DNA from: Macrotis lagotis
Taxonomy: Eukaryota > Chordata > Mammalia > Peramelemorphia > Peramelidae
Direction of reading: 5' to 3'
Length of the DNA stretch: 64,000 bases
NCBI RefSeq assembly: GCF_037893015.1
Contig: NC_133666.1
Span: forward strand, 160,786,490 to 160,850,489
The number at the start of each line of letters is the position of its first letter. Position 1 is the stretch's first letter. The position numbers and the translations under genes are program-made. Below, piece by piece: positions 28,562 through 62,528 of the stretch. The notes under the pieces are model-generated. The model ran no database searches. It was not told where the DNA came from and was given only the letters and a program-made list of their open reading frames with translations.

Positions 28562-28883
28562 TAATCCTTCTATGAGCCAAATCTGATGAGATTAACATTC
28601 AGGCAGTGTTCTCCTCCTTACATTTTCAGTGCTATTGCAATGGGTTCTTTGCACCTCTTCATGTGATGTAATTTAGCAAAGTCAATCAATGCCATTCTTT
28701 TTTTTTAATTTATTTTTTATTCTCATTTTGTACAAATGTTTTTCTTTACATTAATAAAATATACTTGTTTAAAAGTAAACAAAATACCCCTCTCCCATGA
28801 ATATAGATAGACGTGCTTGGGCAAAAAAGTAAAGGGGGGGAGAAAAAAATTAAAATTAAAACAACATAATAGTAATAATTGTA

Positions 28884-29045
28884 GGTATGGCCAGGTGGTA
28901 CAATGGATGAAGCATCAGCCCTGGATCCACGAGCATCCAATCCCATATCCAGCCTCGTAAACCCAATAATCACCAAGCCATGTGACATGCAAGCCACCTG
29001 ATCCCCACTGCCCTGCAAAAACCAAAAAGAAGAAAAAAAAAAGAC
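28884..29045 (+). mobile_element. SINE unit antisense in LINE 3'UTR
   Basis: A diverged WSINE1-like unit ('ggccaggtggtacaatggat', 'aagccacctgatccccactg') with an A-rich tail. Flanking 'atagtaataat' motifs recur before the next unit, so the two may be tandem duplicates or successive insertions. Confidence 0.75.
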
Positions 29046-29074
29046 CCAAAATAAAATAAAATAGTAATAATAGT

Positions 29075-29217
29075 AGGGGTGGCTGGGTGGCAGACAGAGC
29101 ATTGGCCCTTGAGCCAGGAGCACCTGGGTCCAAATCCTGCCCCAGACACCCAATGATCACCCTGCTATGTGGCCCCAGGCAGGCCACCCAACCCCACTTG
29201 CCCTGAACCCTCCCCCA
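29075..29217 (+). mobile_element. Second SINE unit, GC-rich variant
   Basis: WSINE1-like, unusually C-rich ('ggcaggccacccaacccca'), preceded by 'atagtaataatagtagg', a near copy of the flank of the previous unit. Confidence 0.78.
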
Positions 29218-29424
29218 AATAATAATAACAAAAAATGTGTTTCAGTCTTTGTTCCAACACCATCAACTCTGTCGTGAGTGGATCACATTCTTTATGATAA
29301 ATCCATCACAAACGTTAATTCCATATTTTTCCAATGTTGCCATTGCTGATCGCAACTCCCTTCTTTCTTATTTCTCCACTACCATGTACTATATTTTCTC
29401 TCTCCTTTCACTCTGACTCTGCTG

Positions 29425-29577
29425 TACGGTCGCTGAGTGGTACAGCAGACAGATCCCTGGTCCTGGGGCCAAGAAGCCCTGAGCCCCCATACCACCCCTT
29501 AGGCCCAGAATCCACCTGGCCCTATGGTCCTGGGCAGGTCATCCAATCCCAGCCCCTTGCAAGAAGTAAAAAAAGAA
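29425..29577 (+). mobile_element. Third SINE unit, shared with LINE copy 2
   Basis: A GC-rich WSINE1-like unit lying antisense in the 3'UTR. It sits at the position equivalent to the SINE at 60010-60155 in LINE copy 2: upstream both have 'actctg' followed by a 'gctgt' junction, and downstream both have 'aaaaaagaaaat'. LINE copy 3 lacks it at the equivalent place (about 34340). Confidence 0.78.
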
Positions 29578-30433
29578 AATGTGTTATATCTGACCACTGT
29601 CCCCCCATGGTCCATCCTCTTCTCCTTTATTCACATCCCCACCCCTCCCCCCTGCTCCCCCCTCCTTCTTGCTCCAGTTGTCTGTACCCCATTGAGAATA
29701 TTTGCTGTTTCCTCTCCTAGCCACCTCTGATGAGAGCAAAGTTTCCCTCATTCCCCCTTGCCTCCCCCCTTCCACATCATTGCAATAGCTCATTGTAATA
29801 AAACAAATCTTATTATGTGAAATAGCTTGGACTATTCCCCCTCTCCTTTTTCTTTCTTCCATTCCATCTCCCTTTTTTTCTTATTGACTCCATTTTTACA
29901 CCATATTTTATCTTCGAATTCAGCTTTCTCCTGTGCTTCAACTATAAAAGCTCCCTCTACCTGCTCTATTAACTGAGATGGTTCATATGAATATTATCAG
30001 TATCATTTTTCTATACATGCAGTTCATCCTCATTAAGTCCCTCATATTTCCCCCCTCTCCTCCAATCTCCATGCTTCACCTGAGTCCTGTATCTGAAGAT
30101 CAAACCTTCAGTTCAGCTCTGGCCATTCCAAAAGGAACCTTTGAAATTCCCCTGGATCATTGAAAGTCCATCTTTTCCCTGGAAGAGGACATTCAGCCTT
30201 GCTGGGTAGTTCATTCTTGGCTGCATTCTAAGCTCCTTTGCCTTCCGGTATATTGTATTCCAAGCCCTACGAGCTTCCAATGTAGCTGCTGCTAAGTCCT
30301 GTGTGATCCTGACTGCAGCTCCACGATATTTGAACTGTGTCTTTCTGGCTGCTTGTAATATTTTCTCTTTGACTTGGGAGTTCTGGAACTTGGCTATAAT
30401 ATTCCTAGGGGTTGGTTATTTGGGATCTCTTTC

Positions 30434-30634
30434 TCAGGGGGATCGGTGAATTCTCTCCATTTCTATTTTGCCCTCTGCTTCTAGAATATCAGGGCAATTT
30501 TCCTGCAGTAATTCTTTGAAAATGATGTCAAGGCTCTTTTCCTGATCATGACTTTCAGGTATTCCAATAATTTTCAAATTATCTTTCCTAAGTCTGTTTT
30601 CCATATCAGTTGTTTTTTCAATGAGATATTTCAC
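30434..30634 (-). pseudogene. LINE ORF1 RRM-like part, downstream of frameshift
   Basis: The 66-codon frame includes the conserved ENRLRKDNLKIIGIPESHDQ-type block and ELLQENCPDILE, characteristic of the L1 ORF1p RRM domain. It is the continuation of the 209-codon frame in a different phase. The copies at 61028-61219 and 34888-35115 align with it. Confidence 0.8.
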
Positions 30635-30650
30635 ATTTTCTTCTAATTTT

Positions 30651-31280
30651 TCATTTTTTTTGGTTTTGAAGTATTAATTCCTGGTTTCTGGTAAATTCAT
30701 CAATCTCCCTGAATTCTATTCTTTGTCTGAAGGATTTATTCTCCTCAGAGAGTTTTCTTATCTCTTTTTCCATCTGGCCAATTTTGCTTTTTAAAGCATT
30801 CTTCTCCTCAATAACTTTTTGAACTGTTTTATCCATTTGACCTAAGCTGGTTTTTAGCATGCTATTTCCTTCAGCATTTTTTTGGATTTCCTTGACTAAG
30901 CTGCTGACTTCATTTTCATGTTTTTCCTGCATCTCTCTCCTTTCTTTTCCCAGTTTTTCTTCCAACTCCCTCATTTGATTTTCAAAGTCTTTTTTGAGCT
31001 CTATCATAGCCTGAGCCCAATTTCTGTTTTTCTTGGAGTCTTTAGATGCAGGAGCTTGTGCTTCCTCATCTTCAGACTGAGTATTTTGATCCTTCTTGGG
31101 CTCATTTGCAAAATATTTCTCAATGGTCTTCCTCTTGTTTCTTTGTTCATTTTCCCAACCTAAGCCTGTTTTTTGGGGGTGCTTCCTGAGTTTTTGGGAC
31201 ACTCCCACAAGGGTCTCAGTGTGTGAGGTTCTGTCCTCCCTCCTGGTCTGTGAATGACCATAAGCACCCCCCTCTGCCAC
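30651..31280 (-). pseudogene. LINE ORF1 N-terminal half (disordered and coiled-coil), frameshifted
   Basis: A 209-codon open frame encodes an ORF1p-like RNA-binding chaperone of the LINE particle. The N-terminal 70 residues are polar and charged. Residues about 90-205 form a long heptad-rich coiled coil (KKDFENQMRELEEKLGKE, then VQKVIEEKNALKSKIGQM), as expected for the trimerising region of L1 ORF1p. The frame ends at TGA after an A8 run at about 30653-30661. One base shift there would enter the RRM-like block at 30434-30634 (NRLRKDNLKIIGIPESH), so a homopolymer indel has split the gene. The C-terminal domain can be traced to about 30100. Confidence 0.8.
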
Positions 31281-32270
31281 GGGGCTGAGGTGGGGGGGGC
31301 CCTGCTGTTCTATGGGGGAGCCTAGACTGCAATCAGGATTTGAATGTGGTCAGAGCTCCAGAGTCCTGTTCCAGGGACAGAGGACAGAGCTCTGCAGTCT
31401 CTCTTCACTCCCCTCCCCTCCCTCAGCTCAATGGGCTCATGCCCTGGGGGCTCCTGCTTACCAGCTCCACCTGCTTCTGTTTCTGGGTCTAGACTGCCAA
31501 AAGACCAGGCTGCTGGCTGTGTGCCCTGAGGGCTGGGCTCCACATTCTCACTCTGGCAGAGGTCCCCCGATGTTCCCCCACTTTGTGCCGGTGCTCCCCA
31601 GGGTACAACTCAGGAGACTCCCCCATTGCTGTGAGCCTCGGCTCCCAGCTCCCTGGGGCTGCCTCCTGGAGGTTGAAGTTCTTTGCTCTGGCGCCACCCT
31701 TTTGGCAGGCAGCCCCTCCAGCCCCGGGGAGCAGAGCCCTTCTGCTCTTCTCCAGGTTACCTTGAGTAGGAGAACTGCCTCACTGGGTCCCTTTGTGGGT
31801 TCTGTCTCTCGAAAGTTTAGTTAGAGTCCTTAGTTAATGAGTTTATATCAGAGAGCTCCTAAGACTCGATCCCTTCATGTGGTCCATCTTGGCTCCACCC
31901 TAATCAATGCCATTCTTCCATCTTTCTACTGTCCCTCCTTTTTAAGGAGAAATTATTTTTAAAACATTCTGAATCAAGGAAAAGTCTTAAGTGTCCATTA
32001 CTTCTAGCTAAGTATATTTTCTCAAATAGTGTTGCAATTCTCAAGAGTTATGAGAATCTTTCTCTCAGGTAGAGTTAGAGTCTCATCTTCTTGGATAACA
32101 TTTTTTCCTTTTCCTTTTTTTTACCTTTTCATGTATCTCTTGAATCTCCATTTTAAAGCCCATATTTTTATTTAACTTTGGTCTTTTCATGAGTAAACCT
32201 TGAAAATCTGCTATTTTGTTAAATGGTTATCTTTTCTCCTGGAAGAGCAGGCTCAGGTTTGCCAGATAGT

Positions 32271-33097
32271 AAATACTTTTTTTAAAAAGATTTTACTTAT
32301 TTTGAGTTCTAACATTTTCCTCCCAATCTTCTCCCCCCCCCCAATAGAAGGCAGTCTGTTAATCTTTACAATGTTTCCATGGAATACATTGATCGAAGTT
32401 GAATGTGATGAGAGAGAAATTATATTCTTAAGGAAGAAAATAGAGTATAACAGATAGCAGAATTACATAGTAAGATAACAGATTTTTTTTTCTATATTAA
32501 AAGTAAGTCTTTGGTCTTTGTTTATACTCCACAAATCTTTCTCTGGATACAGATGCTATTCTTCATCATTGATACCCCCAAATTTTCCATGATCATTGCA
32601 TGATCATGGAATGAGCAAGTCCATCAAGGTAGGTCATCACCCCCCATGTTGCTGTTAGGGTGTGCAATGTTTTTCTGGTTCTCCTCATCTTGCTCAGCAT
32701 CAGTTCATGCAAACCCTTCCAGGATTTCCTGAATTCCCATCTCTCCAATAATGTTCCAAAATATGCATATACCACAGTTTGTTAAACCATTCTCAAATTG
32801 AAGGACATTTTCTTAATTTCCAATTTATTTGCCACCACAAACAGGGCTGCTGTGAATATTTTTGTACAAGTGATGTTTTTTCCCTTTTTTTCATAATTTC
32901 CTCAAGGTATAGTCCCAGTAGTGGTATTGCTGGATCAAAGGGTATGCACATTTTTGCTACCCTTTGGGCAAAATTCCAAATTTCCTTCCAGAAAGTTTGA
33001 TGAGTTCACAGTTCCACCAACAATGTGTTAGTGACCCAGTTTTCCCACATCCCTTACAACACTGCATTGTCTTGTTGAGTCATATTGGCCAGTGTGA
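32271..33097 (-). mobile_element. 5'-truncated L1 3' end nested in older L1 ORF1
   Basis: L1 3'UTR and ORF2 C-terminal sequence, about 830 bp, interrupts ORF1 of the host L1, whose sequence continues on both sides. A short repeat, AGATAGT (32264-32270 and about 33098-33104), marks the junctions. Confidence 0.75.
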
Positions 33098-33628
33098 GAT
33101 AGTCATATAGTGAATTCTTGGCTGCAATCCAAGCTACCTTGCTGTTCAAAATATCATATTCCAGGGCCTTCAACCCTGTAATGTTGAGGAAATCAGTTCC
33201 TGTGTAATCCTTACTGTGGCTTCTTTATATTTAAATTGTTCCTTTCTGTTTGATTGCAGTATTTTTGCTTTCATCTGATATTTCTGGAATTTGGCCACAC
33301 ATTCCTTGGTGTTTTTGATTTGGGATCACTTGCAGTAGGGGATTGATGTTTTCTTTTATAACTATTTTGCCCCCTGGTTCCATGATAGCAGGACAATTCA
33401 CTTTCAATATATCCTGAAGTATAGAGTACAGACATTTGTTCTTTACTCTCCTCAATGTTTTCTAAAAGCCTAGTGATTCTTAAATTGTCTCTCCTGGATC
33501 TATTCTCCAGCTCCATTGTTTGCCATGAGGTATTTTACATTTTCCTCTATTTTTTAATATTTTTGTTTTTGTTTAACAAATTCTTGTTGTCTCATGAAGT
33601 CAGTAGCTTCTACAGATTCCAATCTTTT

Positions 33629-33635
33629 TTAATTT

Positions 33636-33670
<35 letters not shown>

Positions 33671-33827
33671 TTTTTGTAGGGGTTTTTTTTTTCAAGGAAA
33701 TGGGGTTAAGTGGCTTGTCCAAGGCCACACAGCTAGGTAATTATTAAGTGTCAGAGGCCGGATTTGAACTCAAGTACACCTGACTCCAAGGCCAGTGCTC
33801 TATCCACTGTGCCACCTAGCCTCCCCC
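33629..33827 (-). mobile_element. WSINE1-type SINE with (TTTA)n tail
   Basis: Complete minus-strand SINE. Its A-rich tail has become an eight- to nine-unit TTTA microsatellite at about 33637-33673. The host L1 ORF1 continues on both sides (atctttt junction repeat). Confidence 0.92.
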
Positions 33828-34089
33828 TATCTTTTGTTAGATAAGAATTTTCTCCATTTACCTTTTGAGACTCTTTTTACAGTGTATCAATTCTCTATTT
33901 GAAGTTTTCTTTTTGTCCAATTGTGGTTTTGAGAGAATTATTTTCTTTTTGCACTTCCCCAATTGTATTTTTGTTTTCTTCTTGTTTCAAGATGATTATT
34001 TTCTCTTGCAAACTGTTAAATGTCTCTTGTATTTTTCCCCAAATTTTCCAATTGATTTTTTCTAGTTTATTTATACAATAATCTTGTTA

Positions 34090-36394
34090 TGAGAATAAAT
34101 ATTTATCCCCCCCCCCAAAAAAAAATGATGAGAAATCTCAAAAATAGTGAGAGAGAAAAAATGTACTTCAGTCGGTGTTCAGATTCCAGTGGCTCTGCTT
34201 CTGGGATGAGTTGCCTTCTTTGATATAAATCCACCAAAAAAAGTAGCTTCAATATTTTTCCCACAGTTGCTATTACAAGCTATATTTTTTCCACTCTATT
34301 CCTTCATATTCTCTCTCCTTTTAACTTGTCCCTGTTCAAAATTATGCTGCATCTGAGTACCTTATTCTGCAATCATCCCTCTCTTCTATCACCTATTCCC
34401 CCCTTCCCTCCCTCATTTCCCCTTAATCCATCCCTTTCTCATTTTCTCTAGGGTAAGATAGATTTATGTATCTTATTAAGTAATGAGAAAGTTCATATGA
34501 GTTATCAGTATCTTCTTCCCATGCAAGAATCCAGTTTATCATCATTATGTTCCTCATACTTAGTTCTTCCCATCTGCCCTCTCTATGGTTCACCTGAGCC
34601 CTGTACTTTGAGATCAAACTTTCTGTTCAGCTCTGATTATTTCAATAGGTAAATTGGAAAGTCCTCTGTTTCAATGAAAGTCCATCATTTCGCCTGAAGG
34701 AGGATGCTCAGCTTCATTGAGCAGTTGATTCTCAGTTGTAAACCAAGATCTTTTGCCTTCCAGAATATCTTATTCCAAGACCTACTAGCCCTTAATGTAA
34801 TCCTGAGAATAGAGGCACAGTAGTTGAATTGTAAGTTTCTGGCTGTTTTTAGTATTTTCTAATTGACTTGTGAGTTTTGGAATTTGGCTATAATATTCCT
34901 GGTAGTTTTTCTTTTGGTATCTCTTTCAGGAAGTGATTGCTAATGCCTTCAATTTCTATTTTACCCTCTGCTTCTAGAATCTCAGGGCAATTTTGCTCTA
35001 TTATTTCCTGTAAAATGAAGTCTAGGCTCTTTTCCTGGTCATGATTTTCAAGTAGACCAATAATTTTAAAATTATCTCTCCTGTGTTTCTTTTCGTGTTC
35101 ATTTGTTTTGTTCAATCACATAATTTACATTTTCTTCTAAGTTTTGGTTCTTTTGGTATTGTTTTATTGTCTCATGATTCCTTGCAAAGTCATTGGCTTC
35201 CTTTAGTTCCATTCTGCATTTGAAGGAGATATTTTCTTCAGAGAGCGTTTTTATCTCTTTTTCCACCTAGTCAGTTCTGCTTTTTAAGCCCTTGTTTTCC
35301 TCATTTGCCTTTTGTGTTGCTTTTCCAATCTGGCCTAAACTGCTTATTAACATATTATTTTTTCAGTATTTTTTGTATGTCTTTCACTAAACTGCTGATG
35401 TGGTTTTTATGATGTATCTGCTTCACTCTGATTTCTCCCCCCCCACCAATTTTTCATCTACCTCCCTTAATTGCTTTTCAAAGTCTTTTTTTTTGAGCTC
35501 ATCCATAGCCTGAGCCCATTTTCTATTTCTCTTGGAGATTTGGGGTACAGAACCTTCAATTGTGTCATCTTCTGAATCTTCTATGGAGCCAAATTAATTT
35601 TCTATGATCAGCTTTTTATTTTTCTTTTTTTTTGCTCATTTCATCAACCTATGACTGATTTACCACACTTCAAAGGCTTTTCAGGGTGGGGGGAGGTTGG
35701 GGTCAATTCACAGGGCCCTTAATTCCCCCAAGAACTTATGAGAGGCTCTGATTGTTCTCTTTCCTGTGCTTTGGTATGTGGGTGACCACAGGCCCTCCCC
35801 TCTGCACTGGAGCTGTAAGGAAGGTCCTCTATGGTCATATGGGGGATTTGAGTGTGGACAAATAGCCAGGTCTTGCCCCAGGGAGAGCAGAGTGACCTTT
35901 GTAGTCTCCCATAACCCCCTTACTACCTATGGAATGCACACTGGAGTTATAGGTTGACTTCCCCAATTCCTGCTGCAGGTTCTCACCACAGGGAAAGTTT
36001 GAGGCTTGCACTTGCTCCACACTCACTTTGGTACAGGAGAGTTCTCTCACCATCCCTTCAAGCTGTTCCCGGTGATCCCTGGGCCAAGAAGACTGGAAAC
36101 TGCCCCCACGGTCATGGACCCAGGTGCCCCCAGAGATCTATAAACCTGGCTACTGTTTTGTGGCTGTGGCAGTGCTCACAACAACAACTTTTTCCAAACC
36201 CCAGTCCTGGTGAAACAGACCTTTTCTGTGGAACTTCTAAGTTTTCTTGGACTGGGAATTTGTATCACTCAGTCATTATGAGGGTTCTGACCCTCTACAT
36301 TTTGTCTAGAATCATATTTTGAAGTCTTTTGGAATTTTGGTGGGAATGAGTTTCCAGGAATTCCTTCCATCATGCAGCCATCCTGGCTCCCTCC
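34090..36394 (-). mobile_element. ORF1-only LINE (HAL1-like), copy 3
   Basis: On the minus strand, a 5' end near 36394 ('gggagccaggatggctgcat') is followed by a GC-rich 5'UTR, ORF1 with coiled coil and an RRM block (34888-35115, RRDNFKIIGLLENHDQ), then directly by a 3'UTR related to copies 1 and 2. No ORF2 sequence is present and the SINE seen in the other two copies is absent. The 3' boundary is not clean and no convincing target duplication was found. It is inserted in the 5' region of the older L1, which continues at 36395. Confidence 0.72.
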
Positions 36395-37432
36395 AAATGA
36401 TTTTTAAACTCCTTCCTGGTCTTTTCAAAATAGTCTTTCCAGACTGGAGACAAGTCATATTCTCCTCTGAAATTCTAGATCTCTCTGAGTTAGGATCCTT
36501 ATCTTCAAGCTAGCTTTTAAAGCACCCTGCTTTTCACTGGTCTTTCTTCATTTTCCTAGGATCTTGTGATGGGGAGGGGCTGGCTCACCGACCTTTGGTG
36601 TTGAGATCCCTAGAAGCTATGCTCACTGGGTTTAGGGACACTAAGTGTGTTGGCCAATAATGGATGTTAAACCCTTTTTCTGGATTGTCTGTGAACTTGA
36701 TTAGTGGCCCACTCCCTAGGCAGTGGGAGGGAAGGGGAATGGGGTGGGGGAACAGTAGGATCTGGGTTATCCTAGAGCAATGTGACTTGGGCCCTTGATC
36801 TATATAATTAATCTACTTAATCCTCATTCAGCACTGGGAGAAATATATCATCCATTCCTAAGGGGGGAAGGGGGCTGATTTTTGTTCTGGGAAGAGTCGC
36901 TTTCTAGCACAAGAATGTGGGAAGGGGACTCAACTGGTAATGTGTAGACTTTGCTGAAAACATAAGGGCTCATGGCCCTGGTCTTTCAGACCAGCCAAAC
37001 TGACTGGACTGATGTCTAGCTGCTGTCCTAGAACTCTTCTGCCCCACAAAATAAATTCTTGCATAATGCAGCTCTCCCTGCCACCACAGACACATAGCAA
37101 ATGCTTCTGCTGCTCTTCTCAGGTTAGTCCCTGGCTCTCACTCTGCTTCCCCTCCACTGGTTCTTTGCTCTCTGGGACAGACCTTGTTAGATGTTCTCCT
37201 CAGTTCTTCTTTGGGTTTTGTGGATCCAGATTCTGTTAAGAGGCTTGGTTCATGTTATTTCTAAGATAAAGCCAGGAGAGCTTAGGAAAATAGGGGCTTT
37301 TCTCTGCCATTATTGGCCAGAAGTGATTACTTAGCATATGCTGTCAGTACACCTATTTAATGACCCTAATGTTGTTGAAAATGCAGATTAAAAGGAGTAA
37401 AACAGATCTTCCATTTCTTGCCATCCTGGATT
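36395..37432 (-). mobile_element. 5'UTR of the older host L1
   Basis: Aligns by eye with the L1 5' region at 48.9-49.85 kb ('ctggtctttcttcattttcc', 'gattctagatctctctga'). The element starts near 37432 with 'caaatccaggatggcaagaa' on the minus strand. Confidence 0.7.
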
Positions 37433-37933
37433 TGAGAGGTTCCTTAATTTGTACTTCGTAATTCCCTAATCACCAACCTTTTATGGTCTCTTATTTTCTG
37501 CTAGATTTAGGAATTATGAAGTTGTGTCATCTTGTACCTCTCTCTCTAATTTCTTGACCTTTAATTTGATGTTTCTTATATCCATATCACCTCAAAATTA
37601 TTATGCCATTTTATATGCAAAGTAAAGATTAATTGTTGAAGTTTTTGAATTATTTTTACTCATAAAATGCCATTTTAACTTAGCAGCTTATCTAAGACTA
37701 TGTCTTTAAACAAATAGATTCTTACCATTATGGTCTAGTGGATAATATATTAAATTTTTGATCAAACATCACAATGCGAAGCCTGGCTCTGTTAACCTAT
37801 GTTAATTAAGTCACAGAACCTTTCTAAGTCTCAATTTCCTTATGTACATTCTAACAGTTTGGGTTAGATGATCTTAGAGACTGTATGACAGAGCTGGTAA
37901 GAAACTTGATATGAATTTAAGAAGATAGGTTCA
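37433..37933. other. Unclassified intergenic DNA
   Basis: No gene recognised. The stretch around 37730-37910 has weak, degraded similarity to the tail side of old SINEs, too diverged to call. Confidence 0.5.
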
Positions 37934-39212: not shown

Positions 39213-39226
39213 AAGAAAATTATTTT

Positions 39227-39905
39227 CTTTTTTTCTCTTCTCTCCTGGCCTAAAAAGGGTGCCAGCTCCACTGGGGTAGTATGGCAGTCCAGACTGTGAT
39301 CAAGGTTTGAATATGGATAAAGCACAAGTGTCCTGTCCCAGGGACAGAGGAGATACCTCAACAGTTCCCCCCACTGCCACCTTACCTTTAGTGGGCTGAG
39401 ACCTCTGTGTACAGCTGTCTGGTGGCTCTGTGGGCCTGCTTTTGTTTCCATGACTTGGGCAAAGCCAAGGGTCATGGCTGCAATGCGGACTGAGACTGTG
39501 CTGAGGGTCATACTGGCCTGGGCTCAGCACACAATAATGGAGGTCTCCCTGTTGATCTTCCAAGTTGTCCTTGGTGTTCCCTGGGTTGGCAAGTAAGAAA
39601 ATTGCTTCTGCTGCCACAAGCAGGCGCTTTCAGGGACCCAGGCATCCCACAGGCTCTTCTGGAAATGCTAGAGTTCCTTCACCCAGTGATACAGGCTTGC
39701 TTTGACACTCCCTTAAACCCCATGGAACAGAGCTTTCTTATGATCTTCCATGTTACCTTGGGCTGTAGAATTGTCTCACTGGAAATTTCTGTGGTTTCTG
39801 TCTCTTAAAATTTTAGTTAGAGTCATAATTTTAAGGTTTTTGTTATATTTTAGAAGAGAGTTCCTGGGAAATCTTATCCTCATGATGCCATATTGGCTCC
39901 CCCCC
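39227..39905 (-). mobile_element. Retrocopy of a LINE 5'UTR only
   Basis: About 680 bp match the 5'UTR of the ORF1-only LINEs, especially copy 2 ('tttagttagagtcataattt' at 39821 and 62441). The 5' end is near 39905 ('gggggagccaatatggcatc' on the minus strand). It is flanked by near-identical repeats AAGAAAATTATTTTC (39213-39227) and AAGAAAATTATTTCC (39906-39920), differing at one base, and ends on its own strand in an A-rich tail. So a short transcript containing just the 5'UTR was inserted as such. Confidence 0.75.
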
Positions 39906-39920
39906 AAGAAAATTATTTCC

Positions 39921-53091: not shown

Positions 53092-54030
53092 ATTATATAG
53101 ATGCATTTGTATTTTGAATTCTATTCATGATATTTATTTTATGTTGCTTTAAATTAGAAGCAATGGTATTCAAAATTCTTAGTGTATTACTAACCAGATA
53201 TTGACAGTTTACTACTTTTTTCTTATTATTATTGTGTTCTCATCTTTTGGATGGAGTTCAAATAAAAATGGTTCTTGAATAATTCATTAACCTGATATTT
53301 TTTTACGTCTAATGTTCTGTGGTCTATTGAACATGTTAAAAATTGTTTTTCTTGTAATTGAATGAAGGCCTTGGGCATCAAACTTAATATTATATGAAAC
53401 TCTCTAGCTCATTTTTAATGGAGTTCAGATGAATGTGGTCCATGACAAGTTACTACCCACTGTTATTCTTTTGTATTTTATATTCTATAGATCATCACAA
53501 GACAGATAAAGTAGTTGCATATTGTCATTAAAAATAAGTATTAGGATATAAACTCATCTCCTTTATGCTTTCTAAAAACATCTCTGGTTCAACTGAAGCA
53601 GCAGACAGGATGAGGGAAATGGCAGGTTTTCGCCTTCATGTTTCTATACTTGTCATAGTTATGAATTCTCTATTAATATTGTATGTACTTTTTAAAGTTA
53701 TTTCCCCAAATGTGCTGTGGCCAATTTTCCAGTTAGAAAGAACTTTACTGAAATTGGTTTCTATAGATTTTAATTGATTTAAATGTTTTTCTCTCATTAA
53801 AATTTGATATTTTGTTGTCAATAAGATTTTTAATGTATATGGAAACAGCTTTTCCCCCCAGTAGTTTTATGCATATTTCTTATTTGAAGACTGTTAAGAC
53901 AATTTGAAGCATCACCACTGTGGCTGGGTTTAATTCGTTTTCCAAATTCAAGCTACATGTCTTTAATCAAGTTCTTTCTGTTGGCATAAGTTACAAATGT
54001 TACTATCTCAGAACACTTGAAGTTCTGGTA
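52736..54030. other. Unclassified AT-rich DNA with (TA)n
   Basis: No gene recognised. A (TA)n run with one interruption lies at 53039-53091. Confidence 0.6.
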
Positions 54031-54036
54031 TACAGT

Positions 54037-54496
54037 TGAAAAGTCCTTTGACTTTTCCTTTTGGGCAGCCAGATCATATCTTTCCAAGGTCTTCGAGGCA
54101 CTGCCAGACAGGACCAGCATGTTCAATAATGACAGTTCAAACCAGGAGAGAGGAGTAACAGGTTTTATAAACAAGCCACTTCATCTCTGGATTTGCAAGC
54201 AGACAGCCCTTTTTTATACATGTAAGACCACTCCTTCAGCCTCTTTTAGGTATGCAAAACAGTATAACTCAAAGATTGTTCCCAGGCTTCCTCTTTCACA
54301 CTAGATGTTCTCTCTTCTATCAACTTCAAAGGGTAAGATAATGGTTAAGTAAAGAAGGACCAGAGCTCCTCCCTGAGTACAGAGCACACTCAGATATTTG
54401 CTCTTATCAGAGAGTTCTGACCTTGTGTGAACATCTGGGTCTCATGTTTTCTCAAGAGAACTTTATGGCCAGCATTCTTAACTTTAACCCTTCACA
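54037..54496 (-). repeat. 3' LTR of the provirus
   Basis: Same family as the 5' LTR but about 30 bp longer because of an extra block at about 54313-54347, and with AATAAA changed in the corresponding position (54170s). Differences are spread along the whole length. Confidence 0.88.
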
Positions 54497-54510
54497 TTTC
54501 CCCTTTCCTA
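54497..54510 (-). other. Polypurine tract of the provirus
   Basis: TAGGAAAGGGGAAA on the minus strand directly abuts the 3' LTR, the position where plus-strand DNA synthesis is primed in retroviruses. Confidence 0.8.
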
Positions 54511-56771
54511 CTTAAGCTCAAAGCGCTCACAGATCTCATAGAAAGAGTTGCCTTGGTGGATTGACATATAGCTCAATCATTACTGTTTTGACCAAAAAAA
54601 ACATCAATGCCTTTATCAACAATGGCAAACAGATACAGAACATGGGAGTCAGGACAGACTTGTGAGTTATGTGTTCTTAAGCTTTAGAATAACTAAACAA
54701 GGGGAATTTTACACTGATTGGGATGTAGTTCATGTCTTTGGGAAAAACATGGAGTGAGTGAGCAATGATAAACAGTAAAGGTAAAGAATTAGTACTCCAA
54801 ATTTTTCCCATGACACTGGAGGGTACAAAAAACATTAGAATCCAAACTGAAACATATTCTTTATGAACCCCTTAATTCAATTTACCTGTATATTTAGAAT
54901 AGCACATTATAGGATCAATAATAACATAATAAACTTAATATTTACCTAGTAATTGCTTTCATATCAAACTTTTCACTTTATGGTGTTCAATATTTTTCTA
55001 ATCAATTCATTGCCAAGCACTGCAAAAGTACCAATTTATTGCAATTTTAAATCACCCCAGCCTCATATAAACACATATCTCCCTATAGACTTACAGTTCT
55101 ATACTTTATTCTGTTCTTATGATTTGTACACCATTTTCCAAAGTTCCCAAAATCCATCTTTTGTATACAAAGTCAACCCTGCTCAAACCTTCTGTCTACA
55201 TGCTTTTACCCATTTCCAAACTTAACAAATGGCTCAAGAGAAACCCCAGTTGTCTCTAAGTCTGGATTTTCTTTCCAGTACTTGCAGAATCTCTTACTCA
55301 AACTATACAACTCACATTTTCCACCATTTCTTTTCATTAGCTCTTTTTGACTTTAATTCATACTATTCCAAACTAGATTCACATAGCTTATACAGCTATA
55401 TAAACTACAGATATGATTCCACTTTTCACAATGCATTTTTCATCCAAGGTTTAAATATTTAACATTTCTTGATTACAACTGCAAAAATCCTGGAGAAGCT
55501 AGTCATTCAAAAATCCCTTAGCCTAATTAGAATATTCCCTGCCCTCCTTCTTCAAATAGAGTAAACTGAACAACTTTTATAGAGAGATACCATCCTAGAT
55601 TCTTTGGGGGGGTCTTCTATTCTTCAACCCTTACATGTCCCATAATTTTCTGTAATAACTAAGAATATCTGAATCTATATTGTTAAACTCCTGAAGCTCT
55701 AATGATGTCATATCATTCTGGAAAAAAGATTAATTATTTAGTTTCCCCTATATGGGCATTTTGGTAACCACATTATAGATTTTAGGATTAACCTGACTCT
55801 CTTGTCTTTCTGAAATCTATTTTCACTATTTTCAAATTAAAATAACATTTTGTTCTATGATTTCTTTGTTTAACATATTTGGTAATATTTGCTGTTTCTT
55901 TAACTTCAAATAAGGTCCTTTTTAACACTTACTTTACTAATTCTTCCTGAAGTAGCACTCCCTCCTGAAAGGGGGAGGGATTGGGAAACACTCTGGCAGC
56001 ACAGAATCAAGGAGAATGGGAAAGAGAAGGGAGCATAAACAAGGAATGGGGGGAGGGCCCTTCTCATAATAGTAAAATAACAAGGTGAGTAATTTGGCCT
56101 CAGTCAATTTAACAACAAAATCCATTCCTTTTTAAAAATAAAAACAAAAAAAAATATCCCACTTGGAAGTGCTCGAGACACTGTAGGGGTGAGGAGGGAG
56201 GGATCAGATTACTCACAGAAAGCAGGCTCAAGTGGAGAGCCAGTGAGGGCATTAGATGCCTAAAACTCTAGCTGCCTAAAATAACAAAGAGCAGCAATTT
56301 AAATGAGGTAATCCAAGGATAATTTTAGAGGAACTTTTCTCTCCATCTAGCAAATCAATAGAAGAACCCAAACGCACGCGTAAATAGACAATATAAATAC
56401 ATAAAGACAGTTGAGGCACAAGCACAGATCACACAAATGCAACAGAATTTTCCAAACTGACAATCTCAACACATATTCACAAACACAGACCAATGGCAAA
56501 TTACTGACATCTCAGGAATGCTGTGAGGGGAGATTCTCTCTTAAGCTAGTAAGATCTGGTTATAATGACCAAGAAGGAGCTGATGGGGCAGGAGGAGGCC
56601 AATTTTCATCCTCCTGTATAACTTTATTTCTTTTTTCTATTTCCTTTTTTGTCTTGTACAGCTTTATTGTCTGTTTGGCTTTCTATAGAGAAATGTCTTT
56701 TAGGTCACTCCATTCCCCCAAAAGCATTTTTCACTATACTAAATATCAAGAAATCTAGTTCTTTAAGATAA
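54511..56771 (-). other. Provirus interior without readable genes
   Basis: About 2.26 kb between the gag remnant and the polypurine tract. Stops are frequent in all minus-strand frames and no RT (YxDD), protease or envelope motif is visible. The 62-codon frame at 55937-56125 and the plus-strand frames are not recognisable. Confidence 0.6.
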
Positions 56772-56999
56772 TCAGAGCATACTTGTTTGTAGCAAGTCAT
56801 CTGTTCCTCCTACTATTTTCCATTTTTCAGGGGTTAATTCTATATCTGGAAGTCCTGGTGAAACAGTCTGAATTCTTTCTATGAAACTGTTTAAATCTGG
56901 AAGATTTATAGTTACTCCTGGTTTCTTTACAGTTTTATATATTTGTTGAGCCCAAACTATCTGCTCTTCTGGTTTAATTATGGGTAACAAATTTCCCAT
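56772..56999 (-). pseudogene. gag: Gag matrix remnant of the endogenous retrovirus
   Basis: A 75-codon frame starts Met-Gly, the usual N-myristoylation context of a retroviral matrix protein, about 108 bases inside the 5' LTR, the expected place for gag. A 'VSPGLP' block at residues 46-51 and 'WKIVG' at 60-64 resemble the conserved core of betaretroviral matrix domains. It then meets a TGA, far short of a full Gag. No further capsid or zinc-knuckle sequence is recognised downstream. The assignment rests on position plus these short motifs. Confidence 0.65.
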
Positions 57000-57085
57000 C
57001 CTCCCGACTTTTTTCTTGGGGTGCTCTCACTACTTCCTGTCTTTTTGTTTAGACAGGGTCCTGGTTCCTATCCTGCCCTATCCCT

Positions 57086-57104
57086 GTCCCTGTTCAGGGC
57101 ACCA
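57086..57104 (-). other. Primer-binding site, tRNA-Lys type
   Basis: On the minus strand, 2 bases inside the 5' LTR, lies TGGTGCCCTGAACAGGGAC. This resembles the complement of the 3' end of tRNA-Lys3 (TGGCGCCCGAACAGGGAC), with one C to T change and one extra T. Lys3 priming is typical of several betaretroviruses and of lentiviruses. Confidence 0.75.
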
Positions 57105-57106
57105 CT

Positions 57107-57535
57107 TGAAAAGTCCTTTGACTTTTCCTTTTGGGCAGCTGGGTCATACCTTTCCAAGGTATTTGGGGTACTGCCGGGCACAACCAGCATGTTCAATAAT
57201 GAGAGTTCAAGCCAGGAGAGAGGAGTAACAGATTTTATTAACAGGCTACTACATCTCTTCATTTGCAAGCAGACAGTCCTTTTTTTATACATGTAAGACC
57301 ACCCCCTTCAGCCTCTTTTAGTTATGCAAAACAGTATAACTCATAGATTGTTCCCAGGCTTCCTCTTTCACACTATATGTTCTCTTAACTAAAGAAGGAC
57401 CAGAGCTCCTCCCTGAGTACAGAGCACAATCAGATATTTGCTCTTTTCAGAGCGTTCTGACCTGTGTGAACATCTGGGTCTCATGTTTTCTCAAGAGAAC
57501 TTCATGGCCAGCATTCTTAAATTTAACCCTTTACA
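57107..57535 (-). repeat. 5' LTR of the provirus
   Basis: TG...CA ends in either direction. On the minus strand it holds a TATA-like box (reverse complement of 57280-57289) and a polyadenylation signal AATAAA (reverse complement of 57234-57239) about 45 bp downstream. The short distance implies a small R region. Confidence 0.88.
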
Positions 57536-57541
57536 TACAGT

Positions 57542-58026
57542 AACATGAGTGACACTGTACTATTAACAAATATTACCCTATGCAAATTTATTGGATTTTT
57601 GCAGGATTATTATTTCTTATGGCCTCAGTGAAGTGCAGAAATATCAGACCCAATTGAAACAAATTAGATGGCTATTTGAACCTCAAACAAGTGGTCAGCA
57701 ATTCAGTGCCATAAAAACATAGTGAAAGCCTGGGCTTACTGAAAATGAATTATGTGGACAACATAACATCTTTACTTTTTTTAAAAATTTGACTTTTTAT
57801 TTTGAACTTAAGAGATAAAACATTTCCATAACATAATAGAATAGGAAAAAATGATCATATATAAAATTGCAAATCTATTAGGTACAACTTGCTATTCCTT
57901 TAAAATACATAATAAAGCTCTCTTATAATTTCACTTTCTTTTTTTACCTCTCCTTACCCCTGCCTAGAGACAGCTACCATTATGCATGAATGTGTATGTA
58001 TGTATGTATGTATAAGTTTTTTCTCC
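57542..58026. other. Unclassified AT-rich DNA with (TATG)n
   Basis: No gene recognised. A short (TATG)n run lies at about 57991-58013. Confidence 0.6.
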
Positions 58027-58039
58027 AAATGAAGATTTT

Positions 58040-59597
58040 TTTTTTCTGGGTTTCTGGTCTAGTTTTATTAGAAGTAAGGAGTTTAAGAACTGGGTGAGGT
58101 ATAATGGGTATAATGGCAGAAGCAGCAGGCTGGAGTGGATTAAATAAGTCTAATTTTAATAGGGATAGGGTGGGAACAGTGGGAGGGGAGGGTGTGGGAG
58201 GGGGAGGTTATTCAATGCTGAAGTAGGGAAGGAGGGGAACAGGGGAAAAATGAGAGGGAAGAAAGGCAAGATAGGGTAAGTGTAAGGCAGTGAAGGGCTC
58301 AGAAAGGAGCTTCCCGGCAAGTGCAAGCAGCCATCAGGGCCCGTTTCAGTTGCTCGTAGGTGACCAACATCACTACATTCTAGGAGCCCAGATGGAGGAA
58401 GGAAGGCATGAAACCTTTGTAGAAGGCTTTGGGTCCTTCCTTCTGAAGCATGGTGAGGGCACAGTGGCCAGCACTGGCATACTGGTCTGCGGCAGAGTTC
58501 ATGTATCTCGTCTTGACGACATCCACGGGGGAGGCAATGATGGTGGTGCAAAAGCCAGCCCCAAAGGCTGAAGTGAAGTGGCATGGAAGGTCATCAGTCA
58601 TGAGGTGGGCCTTCAGGAGGGCATCTTTGATGAGATCATAGGTCACCAGTTCAGCACAGTTGACAATAGCATTGCGGGCAACATTGGGTGAAGTTCCTTT
58701 CCATAAGCCCCGAAGCCCCTCCTCTCGGGCAATAGTTTTATAAGCACCCACTGTGCCCTGGTATCTCCGATTGCCACCTGCCCGAGCCTGGGCCTGGAAA
58801 CAGACTTTCACCACATCTGTGGGTTGGGCAACAGCCACTGCCAGTGCTCCTGTGGTGCAGCCTGCCAAGAGACGGCTCCCAATACCTGCATGCTCAGATC
58901 CCTTGGTGTAGAACTGCTTGAAAGAGTCATAGAGGCCAATACGGACAGAGGCAAAACTCATCTGGTGCTGTAAGCCAGCCACTAGCCCATTGTACAGGCT
59001 ACCAGGGCCCTCAGTCTTCACCATAGTCAGAATGGTGCCCATGACACCCCGATACTGGGCAGTGGTAGAAGCTCGCATGGCCCCTTGGTTCTCTCCTTGA
59101 ATCTGTAGCTGGACTTTGGCTGTATCCAGGGGAAAGGTGATGAGGTCAGTGATGCAGGCAGCAGTGCCAGCCCCAAGGAACTTGACAGCAGCTGTTGGGG
59201 GTACATCTGTAGGCTTAAATCCAACCATGATGCTGGCTTTCAGCTCCTTCCCAGGAGGAAAAATGGAAGGATAACCTCCATTGATTGAGCAAGACGAGAT
59301 AGAGTAACTCTGCCGAGTCCTGACTTGGGGGGTCTCACGATGCCTGCACCTTGCTCAAGCTTCTCTAAAGGTGTCCCGTTCTTCAAAGGTGCTCACGGCG
59401 GCTATGGCCCACTCCCCTTGATGTTCCATAGACAGCCGTCAGGGCCCCGGACACCCCACGCTCATGCTACGTGCCGGGCCGTGGAGGAAAACGCGAGAGG
59501 CTGTGGCAGCGGGAGAGGCACCGGGAAGTCTGGGGGTCTAGGTGGTCCGGGGGGGTCCGCGAGGCAGGCGAGGCTGGAGGAGTAGAAGCACGCACTG
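58040..59597 (-). mobile_element. Processed cDNA insertion carrying the UCP2 retrocopy
   Basis: The inserted cDNA spans a CpG-rich 5'UTR (59229-59597), an intronless reading region and a 3'UTR with AATAAA (reverse complement of 58064-58069), followed about 18 bases later by a poly(A) tail (poly(T) ending at about 58045). It is flanked by AAATGAAGATTTT at 58027-58039 and 59598-59610, a 13-bp target duplication typical of L1-mediated retroposition. Confidence 0.95.
58299..59228 (-). pseudogene. UCP2: UCP2 processed retropseudogene, stop at codon 283
   Basis: The source gene encodes mitochondrial uncoupling protein 2, a six-helix inner-membrane carrier of the SLC25 family (SLC25A8) implicated in proton leak and metabolite export. 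From ATG at 59228 to TGA at 58299 there are 309 codons, the same length as human UCP2 as I recall it, without introns or frameshifts. The three carrier signatures are intact: PLDTAK at residues 33-38, PTDVVK at 136-141 and PVDVVK at 234-239. Codon 283, Trp in the family (LGSWNVVM), is TAG, leaving 282 residues and removing the final 27, which include the last part of the sixth helix and the C-terminal matrix tail with its nucleotide-binding region. Changes such as His at 88 and 279 and Cys at 143, where the family has Arg, look like CpG decay. It is otherwise almost undamaged, hence fairly young. I cannot exclude expression, but it is most likely a pseudogene. Confidence 0.95.
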
Positions 59598-59663
59598 AAA
59601 TGAAGATTTTCTAAAGGAAGACAAAGGTGCTTTATTTGTTTCTTCTACTCTCTAAACTTCCAT

Positions 59664-62528
59664 TTAAAAAAAAATTCTTTAATTTATTTACACATTGCTA
59701 AAATATTTTTCTTGCAAAAATAAATATAATACTATCCTCCCTCCACAAAAATACAAGAAAAACCTCATGATAAATAAAATGAAGGAAAGATAAAAAAAAG
59801 TGTATTTCAGTCTGTGTGTGTGCTCTGATAGCATCAGCTCTATTTCTGGGGTGGATCACATTCTTTAAGGTAAGTGCATAATAGAAGCCACTTCCATATT
59901 TTTTCATAGTTGCTGTTGCTGATTGTAATTCCCTCCATCCATTCCTCCCCATTACCATCTATTATATTTTATCTCTGTCTTTACTCTGTCCCTCTTCAAA
60001 AATGTGCTGTGGAGCAGCTCAGTGGCACAGCAGATGAGCCCCAGCCCTGGAGCCAAGAGGCCCTTAAGCCTACATCCCACCCCAGAGAACCAGCAACCAC
60101 CCAGCTCTGTGGTACAGGACAACCCCACCACCTTGCAAAAAATGAAAAAAGAAAATAAGTTAATATTGACTATGCTCTCCTATTATCTACCGTGTCCTCT
60201 CCTCAATCATACACATCTTCCTTCCTCTCCACCTGTCCCCTTTCTGTCTTTTTTCTTCTAGATTTGTATATGCTATTGAGTGTGTATGCTGTTTCCTCTC
60301 TGAGCCTTTTTCAGATGAGAATGAAGACTCCTTCATTCCCCTTCACATCCCCCCCCTTCCAAACATCATAAAAGTTATTTCTTGACATTTTTACATGTAA
60401 TATCTTAGTCCACTTTAGCTCTCCTTTCCTTTTTCCTTTTTCCCATTTCTTTTTCACCCACTGACTCCATTTTTACAATATATTATACCTTCAAATTCAT
60501 CTCCCTCCTGTGACTTGTCTATATAAGCTCCTTCTAATTGCTCTACAAAATGAGGAGGTTTTTATGAGTATTATCAGTATCATCATTCCATGCAGGAATA
60601 CAAACAGTTCAACATCCTTAAATCCATCATAATTTGCTCTTCCCATGCATCATCTCTTTGATTCACTGGAGTCTTGTACTTGAAGATCAAACTTTCTGTT
60701 CATGTCTGGTCATTTCAACAGGAACATTTGAAATTCCCCTGTTTCATTGAAAGTCCATCTTTTCCACTGGCAGAGGGTATTCAGGTTTGCTGGGCAGTTC
60801 ATTCTCAGTTGCATTCTAAGCTCTTTTGCCTTCTGCAATATTATATTTCAAGTACTATGAGCCTTAATGTGAATGCTGATAAATCCTGTGTGATCCTGAA
60901 TGTAGCTCCATGATATTTGAATTGTTTATTTCTGGGTGCTTGTAATATTTTTGCTTTGACTTGGGAGTTCTGGAACTTGGATATAATATTCCAGAGAGTT
61001 GATTTTTTAAACTCTTTCAGTAGGGCATCAGTGGATTCTCTCAATTTCTATATTGCCCTCTGCTTCTAGGATATCAGGGCAATTTTCCTGTAGAAATTCT
61101 TTAAAAATGAAGTCAAGGATCTTTTCATGATAATGAATTACAGGTAGCCCAATAATTTTTAAATTATCGCTTCCATATCTGTTTCTCGTATCAGTTGTTT
61201 TTTCAGTGAGATATTTCACAACTACTAGTTTTTAATTCTTTTGCTGTTGAATTATTATGTCATGATTTCTCACAAAGTCATCAGCTTCCTTTAGCTCCAT
61301 TATACATTTGAAGGATTTGTTTTTCAGTGAGCTTTCTTATCTCCTTTTCTATCTGGCAAATTCTGCTTTTTAAAACATTCCTCTCCTCAATAACTTTTTG
61401 AACTGTTTTATCCATTTGACCTAAACTGGTTTTTAATATGTGATTTTCTTCTGCAATTTTTTGGATCTCCTTGAGTAAACTGCTGACTTTGTTTTCATGT
61501 TTTTCCTGCATCTCCCTCATTTCTCTTCCCAATTTTTCTTGTACCTCCCTTACTTGATTTTCAAAATATTTTTTTGAACTTTGTCAGGGCATGAGCCCAA
61601 CTTCTATATTTCTTGGAGTCTTTAGATGAAGAAACGTGCATTTTCTCATCTTCTGATTGCGTGTTTTGGTACTCCATGAGACCAAGGTAATTGTCTATAG
61701 TCAGGTTCCTTTTTTTCTGTTTACTCATTTCCCCACACTGATTTGGGGTACTTCCTGAGCTTTTGCATACTATTGGGATACCCTGGCATGGACTTCAGTT
61801 CCCTCAAGTTCTTATGAGAAGCTCTGGCTCCTTTCCTGTCTGTTCTCTGCTCTGTAGGTGACCATAAGCTCACCCTTCTACCCTGGGGCTGTGAGGAAGG
61901 TACCTGCTCTATAATAGCATGAGGACCCCAGACTGTAACCAGGGTCTGAATATAATCAAAGTCCCAGTCTCCTTTCCCAGGGACAGAGGACCAACCTCGA
62001 TAGTCTCCCTCTACTCCCTTACTTCTGCAGGATGAGTGCTCAGAGAGAAGCTGCAGGGCAACTCCCTGCTGGATGGCTCCACAGATCTGCATCTGATTCC
62101 TGGGATCTGGGCTGTTCTGAGGGCCACAGTCTCATTAAGGAGGGCCATGCTGGATTGGTCTTCAGGCTCATTCTTGCAGAGGTTTCCCTGCTGATCTTCC
62201 AAGTTGTGCTTGGTGCTCCCTGGGGTAGCAGGCAAGGAAATGACTTCTATTTCCAGGAGCCAGAGCTTCCAGGGAGACAGGCTCTGTGAGGCTATTCCCA
62301 GAAGGCTGTAGCTCCTTTATTCAGGCTTGTTGCTGCCCCCTCCAACCTTGTGGAAAAGGACCTTCCTACTATTTTCCAGGTTACCTTGGACTGGACAATT
62401 GAATCACTGGATCTTTCTGTGGCTTCTTTCTCTTGGAAATTTAGTTAGAGTCATAATTTTAAAGCTTTTGAAATATTTTTTGAGAGCTCCTAGGAAAGAT
62501 TGTTCTCCTGCCACCATTTTGTCTCTGC
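59664..62528 (-). mobile_element. ORF1-only LINE (HAL1-like), copy 2
   Basis: The 5' end is near 62528 ('ggcagagacaaaatggtggc' on the minus strand). A GC-rich 5'UTR runs to about 61730. ORF1 is broken into frames at 61281-61532 (coiled coil: VSSLLKEIQKIAEENHILKT), 61028-61219 (RRM: NRYGSDNLKIIGLPVIHYH) and 60841-61044 (C-terminal: ILQAPRNKQFKYHGATFRIT). The 3'UTR follows directly and includes an antisense SINE. No ORF2 is present. Its 3' end aligns with that of copy 1 ('ttaatttattt', then 'aataaaatata'-like). It begins about 60 bases from the UCP2 retrocopy, on the same strand. No clear target duplication was found. Confidence 0.8.
60010..60155 (+). mobile_element. SINE unit antisense in LINE copy 2 3'UTR
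   Basis: WSINE1-like ('ggagcagctcagtggcacag' to 'accaccttgcaaaa') with an A-rich tail, at the same position in the LINE as the unit at 29425-29577. Confidence 0.82.

What the first reader, a model, noticed from the sequence alone, without database searches (positions are those of the whole stretch)
28700..62528. A family of LINEs with ORF1 but no ORF2 (HAL1-like), three copies in one window
Copies at 28700-31901, about 34090-36394 and about 59664-62528 share a GC-rich 5'UTR, ORF1 and then a 3'UTR with no endonuclease or RT. Copy 1 has a perfect 16-bp target duplication at its outer ends, so the ORF2-less form was itself the retroposed unit. Three copies with the same junction argue for an amplifying non-autonomous subfamily, comparable to HAL1 elements of placental mammals, rather than independent deletions.
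Basis: partly seen in the sequence, partly recalled or inferred. Interest (0 to 1): 0.75.

Follow-up and report, generated by a model that had tools for sequence, protein, structure and literature searches.

The report
Half-L1 retrotransposons in the bilby genome
This stretch of what is almost certainly greater bilby DNA carries copies of a jumping element that kept only the first gene of the common LINE-1 element and spread in successive waves, presumably by borrowing another element's copying enzyme; such half-LINE-1 elements are known in other mammals, so this is a well-supported new example and not a new kind of thing.

Summary
The finding holds. The host is almost certainly the greater bilby, Macrotis lagotis. 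All three elements lie on the minus strand. Copy 1 (3,202 bp) has a perfect 16-bp target duplication, copy 2 a 14-bp one with one mismatch, copy 3 none found. Copies 1 and 2 are nested in one old L1; their joined flanks align to L1 across the join.

None of 80 fetched relatives, taken from the best 40 hits of five queries, showed ORF2 in the stretch examined. Target duplications: 18 of 22 copies against 5 of 460 control pairings.

The copies are three successive subfamilies: copy-2 type (no internal SINE), copy-3 type (one antisense SINE), copy-1 type (three; 1.1% from its majority). Corrections: the first roughly 500 bp after ORF1 is homologous to the L1 inter-ORF spacer, and copy 2 has a private deletion of about 260 bp just after ORF1.

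ORF2-bearing L1s coexist, with a different ORF1. One open 370-aa HAL1-type ORF1 is annotated in bilby. HAL1s are a known kind with several origins (PMC5753468, passage); this is a young, SINE-accreting marsupial lineage.

The parts
28700..31901 (-). HAL1 copy 1 (young subfamily), full length, 3,202 bp
   Evidence: 17 of 20 relatives align to within 12 bases of both ends at 93.7-95.2%; inserted in the inter-ORF spacer of an old L1
31902..31917 (-). 5' target-site duplication of copy 1 (16 bp)
   Evidence: identical to 28684-28699
28684..28699 (-). 3' target-site duplication of copy 1 (16 bp)
31166..31901 (-). 5'UTR of copy 1, starts AGGGTGGAGCCAAGATGG
   Evidence: profile of this region also matches copies 2 and 3 and 39904-39269
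30042..31165 (-). ORF1 of copy 1 (L1 ORF1p-like, frameshifted)
   Evidence: domains from relative L016
29572..30041 (-). post-ORF1 region, homologous to the L1 inter-ORF spacer
   Evidence: matches the copy-2-type profile (E 4.5e-53), which matches the spacer of 5 of 5 autonomous L1s at E 8.3e-11 to 1.1e-3
29422..29571 (-). SINE-like module a, antisense; shared with copy 3
   Evidence: copy-3-type relatives carry it in 12 of 12
28797..29229 (-). two further antisense SINE modules (b, c), found only in the copy-1 subfamily
   Evidence: 66-75% to window SINEs; not seen at this place in 12 of 12 copy-3-type relatives
34061..36391 (-). HAL1 copy 2 (oldest subfamily), no SINE modules, private deletion of about 260 bp at 34481/34482
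36392..36405 (-). 5' target-site duplication of copy 2 (14 bp, 1 mismatch)
   Evidence: pairs with 34047-34060
34047..34060 (-). 3' target-site duplication of copy 2
34566..35651 (-). ORF1 of copy 2 (broken)
   Evidence: profile match E 4.9e-184
59665..62525 (-). HAL1 copy 3 (middle subfamily), one SINE module; no target duplication found
60627..61741 (-). ORF1 of copy 3 (broken)
   Evidence: profile match, E printed as 0; copy 3 itself was among the rows of that profile
39226..39905 (-). fourth HAL1 piece: 5'UTR only, ends in an A-run, flanked by a 13-bp duplication (39906-39918, 39213-39225)
25718..36589 (-). pieces, in order, of an old ORF2-bearing L1 that hosts copies 1 and 2 and a truncated L1 (32279-33099)
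   Evidence: map on L051; empty-site joins align across the join in 4 of 5 L1s

Best explanation
These are half-L1 (HAL1-type) elements: a non-autonomous lineage derived from a marsupial L1 by loss of ORF2. The unit is 5'UTR, ORF1, part of the old L1 inter-ORF spacer, and an L1-like 3' tail with SINE modules added later. Inferred mechanism: a promoter in the retained 5'UTR makes a polyadenylated RNA; the RNA encodes its own ORF1p, which binds it; and ORF2p from co-resident autonomous L1s nicks A-rich targets and copies the RNA by target-primed reverse transcription. Shown here: the anatomy, the shared structure in the sampled copies, target duplications and A-rich tails, coexistence of ORF2-bearing L1s of low divergence, and successive subfamilies. 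Inferred: transcription, translation, cis-binding and the ORF2p donor.
For: No ORF2 in any of 80 fetched relatives within the stretch examined. Target duplications in 18 of 22 copies vs 5 of 460 mismatched pairings. Empty-site joins of copies 1 and 2 align to L1 across the join in 4 of 5 L1s each. HAL1 ORF1 is 54% identical to a bilby L1 ORF1 over 236 columns. The post-ORF1 region matches the L1 inter-ORF spacer, E 8.3e-11 to 2.4e-9 in 4 of 5 L1s and 1.1e-3 in the fifth. Stepwise SINE gain fits one lineage; the ORF1 tree puts the HAL copies in one clade with modest support (81/99). An open 370-aa ORF1 is annotated in bilby. ORF1 diverges less than the post-ORF1 region between copies 1 and 3 (220/1111 vs 146/459, p 4e-7) but not within the young subfamily (p 0.27). 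Five ORF2-bearing L1s are 94-97% alike over their long shared stretches.
Against: Codon-based tests of selection were inconclusive: in-frame dN/dS 0.45-0.59 between subfamilies, but also 0.52 within the young subfamily, where none is expected. None of 18 copies checked has the full ORF1 open. Copy 3, L011, L016 and L019 show no target duplication in the scoring. The spacer and the post-ORF1 region are both purine-rich: nhmmer reports a composition bias (32 to 35 bits for the four best hits) as large as the scores, and an earlier, weaker form of the test was matched by 1, 2 and 4 of 200 shuffles. Homology of the 3' tail to L1 3'UTRs is weak (E 0.0012 in 2 of 5 targets; 0.0086 and 0.015; none for the tail regions against the young L1 3'UTR profile).
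Confidence: 0.93

Rival explanations
1. Independent ORF2 deletions after insertion of full L1s, so the three copies resemble each other by chance.
For: Private deletions do occur: copy 2 lacks about 260 bp that its relatives keep, L079 lost the stretch from the 5'UTR to the tail, and L027 lost part of its 5'UTR.
Against: Same structure in 80 fetched loci, with target duplications around the ORF2-less unit in 18 of 22 copies.
Confidence: 0.01
2. The ORF2-less units are by-products (spliced or internally deleted transcripts) thrown off repeatedly by an ordinary L1, with no HAL1 source lineage of their own.
For: ORF2-bearing elements are abundant: the reverse-transcriptase search gave 65,591 first-look candidates, L1 or other.
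Against: The co-resident young L1 has a different ORF1 (54% aa), and no convincing match to the HAL1 5'UTR was found in 4 of its copies. Successive HAL1 subfamilies share an ORF1 clade and nested SINE gains.
Confidence: 0.05
3. Processed copies of a domesticated ORF1-like host gene (an L1TD1-like case), not a mobile element family.
For: An open ORF1 is annotated as a bilby gene, LOC141499684.
Against: Copies begin at a constant 5' start and carry a non-coding 5'UTR, 3'UTR and SINE modules. The three subfamily queries had 7,787, 12,311 and 16,492 first-look candidates, which are not copy counts. L1TD1 itself is reported absent from marsupials (PMC4161310, passages).
Confidence: 0.01

Closest known systems
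HAL1 (half-L1) elements of placental mammals (Bao and Jurka 2010, not held here; described in passages of PMC5753468 and PMC5322556)
   Same: L1-derived, encodes only ORF1p, poly(A) or A-rich tail, target duplications, presumed dependence on L1 ORF2p.
   Different: Marsupial host; ORF1 best matched by marsupial proteins; long 3'UTR containing L1 inter-ORF spacer and up to three antisense SINEs. Whether placental HAL1s keep spacer sequence was not checked.
Autonomous L1 of the same genome (L049-L053)
   Same: Homologous ORF1 (best in its C-terminal half) and spacer; the 5' starts share a short CCAAGATGGCG string, read by eye.
   Different: Has ORF2; otherwise no convincing 5'UTR match; ORF1 protein only 54% identical.
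HAL1 of rat (PMC8535693, passage)
   Same: A HAL1 said to have become active in that lineage and to retain its internal promoter.
   Different: Different host lineage; no sequence comparison was made here.
SINEs and SVA-like composites (recalled)
   Same: Non-autonomous, use L1 machinery, accrete modules.
   Different: Those encode no protein; this element encodes an L1-type ORF1p.

Membership tests
HAL1 (half-L1) | L1-type ORF1 | tested here: met
   Transposase_22 E 1.3e-12, Tnp_22_dsRBD E 1.3e-5, PDB 2ldy/2yko, all on relative L016
HAL1 (half-L1) | no ORF2 in the mobile unit | tested here: met
   0 of 80 fetched relatives with ORF2 in the stretch examined
HAL1 (half-L1) | ORF2-less unit itself retroposed: A-rich tail and target duplications | tested here: met
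   18 of 22 copies vs 5 of 460 control pairings; empty sites
HAL1 (half-L1) | derived from L1 | tested here: met
   ORF1 54% aa to bilby L1; spacer homology, best E 8.3e-11; 3' tail homology weak
HAL1 (half-L1) | amplified as a family | tested here: met
   40 of 40 scored junction hits at 96-100%, from 7,787 first-look candidates (not a copy count)
HAL1 (half-L1) | some copies with an open ORF1 | tested here: met
   open 370-aa P0002 annotated in bilby; but 0 of 18 checked copies fully open and the genome-wide count did not complete
HAL1 (half-L1) | mobilised in trans by L1 ORF2p | not testable with these tools
   co-resident ORF2-bearing L1s exist; needs an assay
HAL1 (half-L1) | match to a named Repbase or Dfam HAL1 consensus | not tested
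   no such library on hand; Bao and Jurka 2010 not held
Autonomous L1 | ORF2 with endonuclease and reverse transcriptase | tested here: not met
   absent from the unit

The most novel reading that the evidence does not exclude
A single ORF1-only lineage has run beside L1 in the bilby's ancestry through at least three subfamily turnovers. It kept and evolved its own ORF1p under constraint after ORF2 was gone, and it took antisense SINEs into its 3'UTR step by step without losing mobility. It was active until recently and may still be. That would make it a long-lived parasite that packages its own RNA and borrows only L1's reverse transcriptase.
Probability: 0.55. Interest if true: 0.6.

Novelty: new member of a known kind. 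Interest (0 to 1): 0.45.

Why it matters
HAL1s bear on why a LINE parasite would keep ORF1 but not ORF2, that is, on whether ORF1p acts mainly on its own RNA while ORF2p can be shared. A young marsupial lineage with ordered subfamilies and an open ORF1 makes that testable outside placental mammals. The stepwise SINE gains mark the order of events and show that an L1-type 3'UTR tolerates large inserts.

Tried and rejected
dN/dS as proof of selection on ORF1: rejected as inconclusive, because the within-family control gave about the same ratio (0.52) as the between-family comparisons (0.45-0.59). Third-position transversions gave p 0.02 and all substitutions p 0.06.

Homology of the HAL1 5'UTR to the young L1 5'UTR: nothing convincing in 4 L1s (best E 0.02, opposite strand). 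Homology of the HAL1 tail to the young L1 3'UTR profile: not detected for the tail regions of copies 1-3.

First spacer test, using the young L1 spacer profile against single HAL1 copies: only suggestive (1, 2 and 4 of 200 shuffles reached the real score). It became firm only with the copy-2-type profile, which I did not test against shuffles.

A genome-wide count of open ORF1s (protein search with P0001) did not complete.

Protein relatives in wallaby, wombat, Tasmanian devil and opossum: whether they belong to HAL1 or to L1 could not be told, because I had no genomic context for them. The ORF1 tree leaves most of them unresolved (18 rows: 14 of the 32 hits, plus L016, copy 2, copy 3 and one bilby L1).

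First-look candidate counts are not copy numbers. In each DNA search 40 places were scored, so the sampled loci are those most similar to the query; I fetched 20, 20, 12, 12 and 16 of them. In some searches I listed only matches above 88% identity. L027 was dropped from the target-duplication count because it is rearranged.
Full report
Source. The window is G000:C9:160786490-160850489 of a 3,655,600,598-base assembly in 607 contigs. C1 is 934,355,481 and C2 343,853,051 bases. Passages of PMC11239497 give the greater bilby assembly as 3.66 Gb, 609 scaffolds, chromosome 1 of 934,426,298 bp and N50 343.85 Mb. A protein named LOC141499684 [Macrotis lagotis] lies on a contig of 704,739,007 bases, the length of C9. 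I therefore treat the host as the greater bilby.

Observation. Self-comparison shows the three elements sharing 70-73% identity over 1.1-2.3 kb. Reading the minus strand, copy 1 runs 31901 to 28700, copy 2 36391 to 34061 and copy 3 62525 to 59665. Copy 1 has a perfect 16-bp target duplication, copy 2 a 14-bp one with one mismatch, and copy 3 none that I could find. ORF1 of the best-preserved relative, L016 (324 aa open), matches Transposase_22 (E 1.3e-12), Tnp_22_dsRBD (E 1.3e-5) and LINE-1 ORF1p chains in the PDB (best E 5.2e-25). The 209-aa open piece of copy 1 has no Pfam match.

Insertion of the ORF2-less unit. Mapping the window on a nearly full-length bilby L1, L051, shows pieces of one old L1 in order on the minus strand from 36589 to 25718. 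Copy 2 interrupts it between L1 positions 291 and 312, and copy 1 between 1540 and 1558. When the flanks are joined with one duplication removed, the run aligns across the join in 4 of 5 L1s for each copy. In the fifth, L050, the long L1 match begins downstream of these places. So in both cases what jumped was the unit without ORF2.

The family in the genome. A query across the ORF1/3'UTR junction of copy 1 had 7,787 first-look candidates; of the 40 scored, the 39 other than the window copy are 96-97% identical. Twenty were fetched with 8-kb surroundings. Seventeen align to copy 1 to within 12 bases of both ends, L012 and L022 stop near element positions 2630-2670, and L027 lacks about positions 76-360; in all 20 the alignment runs unbroken from ORF1 into the 3' region. 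L012 and L022 end in A-runs followed by their own target duplications, so they look like insertions of prematurely polyadenylated RNA. An ORF1-only query gave 40 scored hits, the 39 others at 95-97%; of 20 chosen across that list, 20 run from ORF1 straight into the copy-1-type 3' region. A query with only the last 199 bases gave 40 scored hits; of 16 fetched upstream, 15 run back without ORF2 into ORF1 and one (L079) joins the 5'UTR to the tail by an internal deletion. Of 12 copy-3-type relatives fetched, 12 have the same order and no ORF2 inside the element; autonomous-L1 matches in L055, L060 and L061 lie at or beyond the element's end. Of 12 copy-2-type relatives fetched, 12 show no ORF2, sense strand searched; L1 matches there are to the end of ORF1 (L066, L070, L074) or to L1 3'UTR beyond the matched tail (L070, L071), and the tail of L072 was not matched. 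In total none of 80 fetched relatives shows ORF2 within the stretch examined. All were picked from the 40 best-scored places of each search, and L016 and L017 are one insertion duplicated.

Target duplications. Over 19 relatives (L027 left out) and the three window copies, 18 of 22 have a flanking match scoring at least 10, against 5 of 460 pairings of one copy's 5' flank with another's 3' flank. L011, L016, L019 and copy 3 fail in this scoring; L016's twin L017 passes. Ten of the 18 begin with three or more A's, as expected of L1 endonuclease sites (general knowledge), though some of these A's may belong to the tail.

Three subfamilies. Copy-2-type elements have no SINE module: in 11 of 12 the alignment to copy 2 runs on through the place, and L072 is not covered. 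Copy-3-type have one antisense module (a). Copy-1-type have a plus two more (b, c) at one place, element positions about 2673-3105. Modules b and c are 66-75% identical to SINEs in the window; module a is weaker (best E 4e-4 for copy 1, 6e-7 for copy 3). Scored members are 78-83% identical to copy 2 and 79-83% to copy 3, and 95-97% to copy 1. Mean non-CpG divergence of 18 copy-1-type elements from their majority over ORF1 and the post-ORF1 region is 1.1%; these were picked for similarity, so the family mean may be higher. The ORF1 tree places the HAL copies in one clade with modest support (81/99), copy 2 outermost, then copy 3, then the young pair. I read this as one lineage with successive source elements, not three independent deletions.

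Origin from L1. Five reverse-transcriptase-bearing L1s with long open frames were chosen from 150 scored RVT_1 hits (65,591 first-look candidates). They are 94-97% alike over the long shared stretches. Their layout, read from L051, is ORF1, a spacer of about 740 bp, ORF2, and a 3'UTR of about 375 bp. HAL1 ORF1 is 54% identical to this L1's ORF1 over 236 columns. A profile of the post-ORF1 region of 12 copy-2-type elements matches the L1 spacer collinearly: E 8.3e-11, 1.8e-10, 4.3e-10, 2.4e-9 and 1.1e-3 in the five L1s. Its best non-HAL1 hits in the window, all on the right strand, also fall in or beside L1 spacers: 63295-63636 E 1.9e-8, 10892-10989 E 2.6e-4, 48690-48566 E 1.3e-3, 28677-28562 E 0.023 (located; the second by its likeness to 21302-20921). 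Both sequences are purine-rich and the reported composition bias is large, so I rest more on collinearity and position than on the E-values. The HAL1 tail resembles 3'UTRs of old L1s in the window only weakly (E 0.0012 in two of five targets; 0.0086 and 0.015). The simplest reading is an ancestral L1 that lost the stretch from the spacer to the 3'UTR, removing ORF2. The exact breakpoint is not resolved.

Is ORF1 still doing something? For: a bilby protein of 370 aa, open throughout and 94% identical to L016 ORF1; and slower divergence of ORF1 than of the post-ORF1 region between copies 1 and 3 (220 of 1111 vs 146 of 459, p 4e-7), with no such difference within the young family (255 of 20201 vs 93 of 8470, p 0.27). 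Against: no copy among 18 is fully open, and dN/dS does not separate from its within-family control. I regard function as likely but not shown.

Known or new. PMC5753468 (passages) states that HAL1 is a non-autonomous L1 derivative encoding only ORF1p and that HAL1s originated independently several times in mammals, citing Bao and Jurka 2010, which is not held. PMC5322556 (passages) describes HAL1s as widespread in mammals with target duplications, and screened opossum, wallaby and Tasmanian devil RepeatMasker output for full-length L1 and HAL1 together, so marsupial HAL1s may already be named in that library. PMC8535693 (passages) mentions HAL1 activity in rat. Searches pairing HAL1 with marsupial terms listed 20 of 26, 20 of 154 and 12 of 140 papers; no listed title or abstract start is about marsupial HAL1s. 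Papers outside the library and Repbase were not searched. I file this as a new member of a known kind.

Noticed in passing
39213-39918 (minus): A HAL1 copy consisting only of the 5'UTR, ending in an A-run, flanked by a 13-bp duplication: apparently reverse-transcribed from a prematurely polyadenylated HAL1 RNA.
   Followed up: partly
58027-59612 (minus): A mitochondrial-carrier retrocopy (Pfam Mito_carr E 5.4e-60; UCP2-like and processed by recall) with an A-run and a 13-bp exact duplication (15 bp with one mismatch), inserted right next to the 3' end of HAL1 copy 3.
   Followed up: partly
L049-L053 (spacer in L051 about 1163-1900): Bilby L1s have an inter-ORF spacer of about 740 bp as read from L051, far longer than the few dozen bases I recall for human and mouse L1.
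   Followed up: no
L012 and L022: Young HAL1 copies that end early at an A-run yet have perfect target duplications, showing alternative 3' ends of the RNA.
   Followed up: yes
copy 1 and L009-L028, 5'UTR: Within the young subfamily the 5'UTR differs by 7% on average between pairs (0.1-11.6%), about three times ORF1 (2.4%) and the post-ORF1 region (2.1%); CpG decay or several 5'UTR variants could explain it.
   Followed up: no
L016 and L017 (C3 about 25.63 and 25.74 Mb): Two very similar HAL1 copies with nearly identical flanks about 113 kb apart: a local duplication, not two insertions.
   Followed up: no
54033-54497 and 57103-57536: An 85% identical direct repeat pair about 3 kb apart, possibly LTRs of an old retroelement.
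   Followed up: no
P0003, P0004, P0006-P0008: Wallaby and wombat proteins 56-65% identical to HAL1 ORF1; whether they belong to HAL1 or L1 is unknown.
   Followed up: no
P0011: An ORF1-like protein 48% identical to HAL1 ORF1, filed under a Bacteroidales metagenome bin on a 2,533-base contig: probably host contamination.
   Followed up: no
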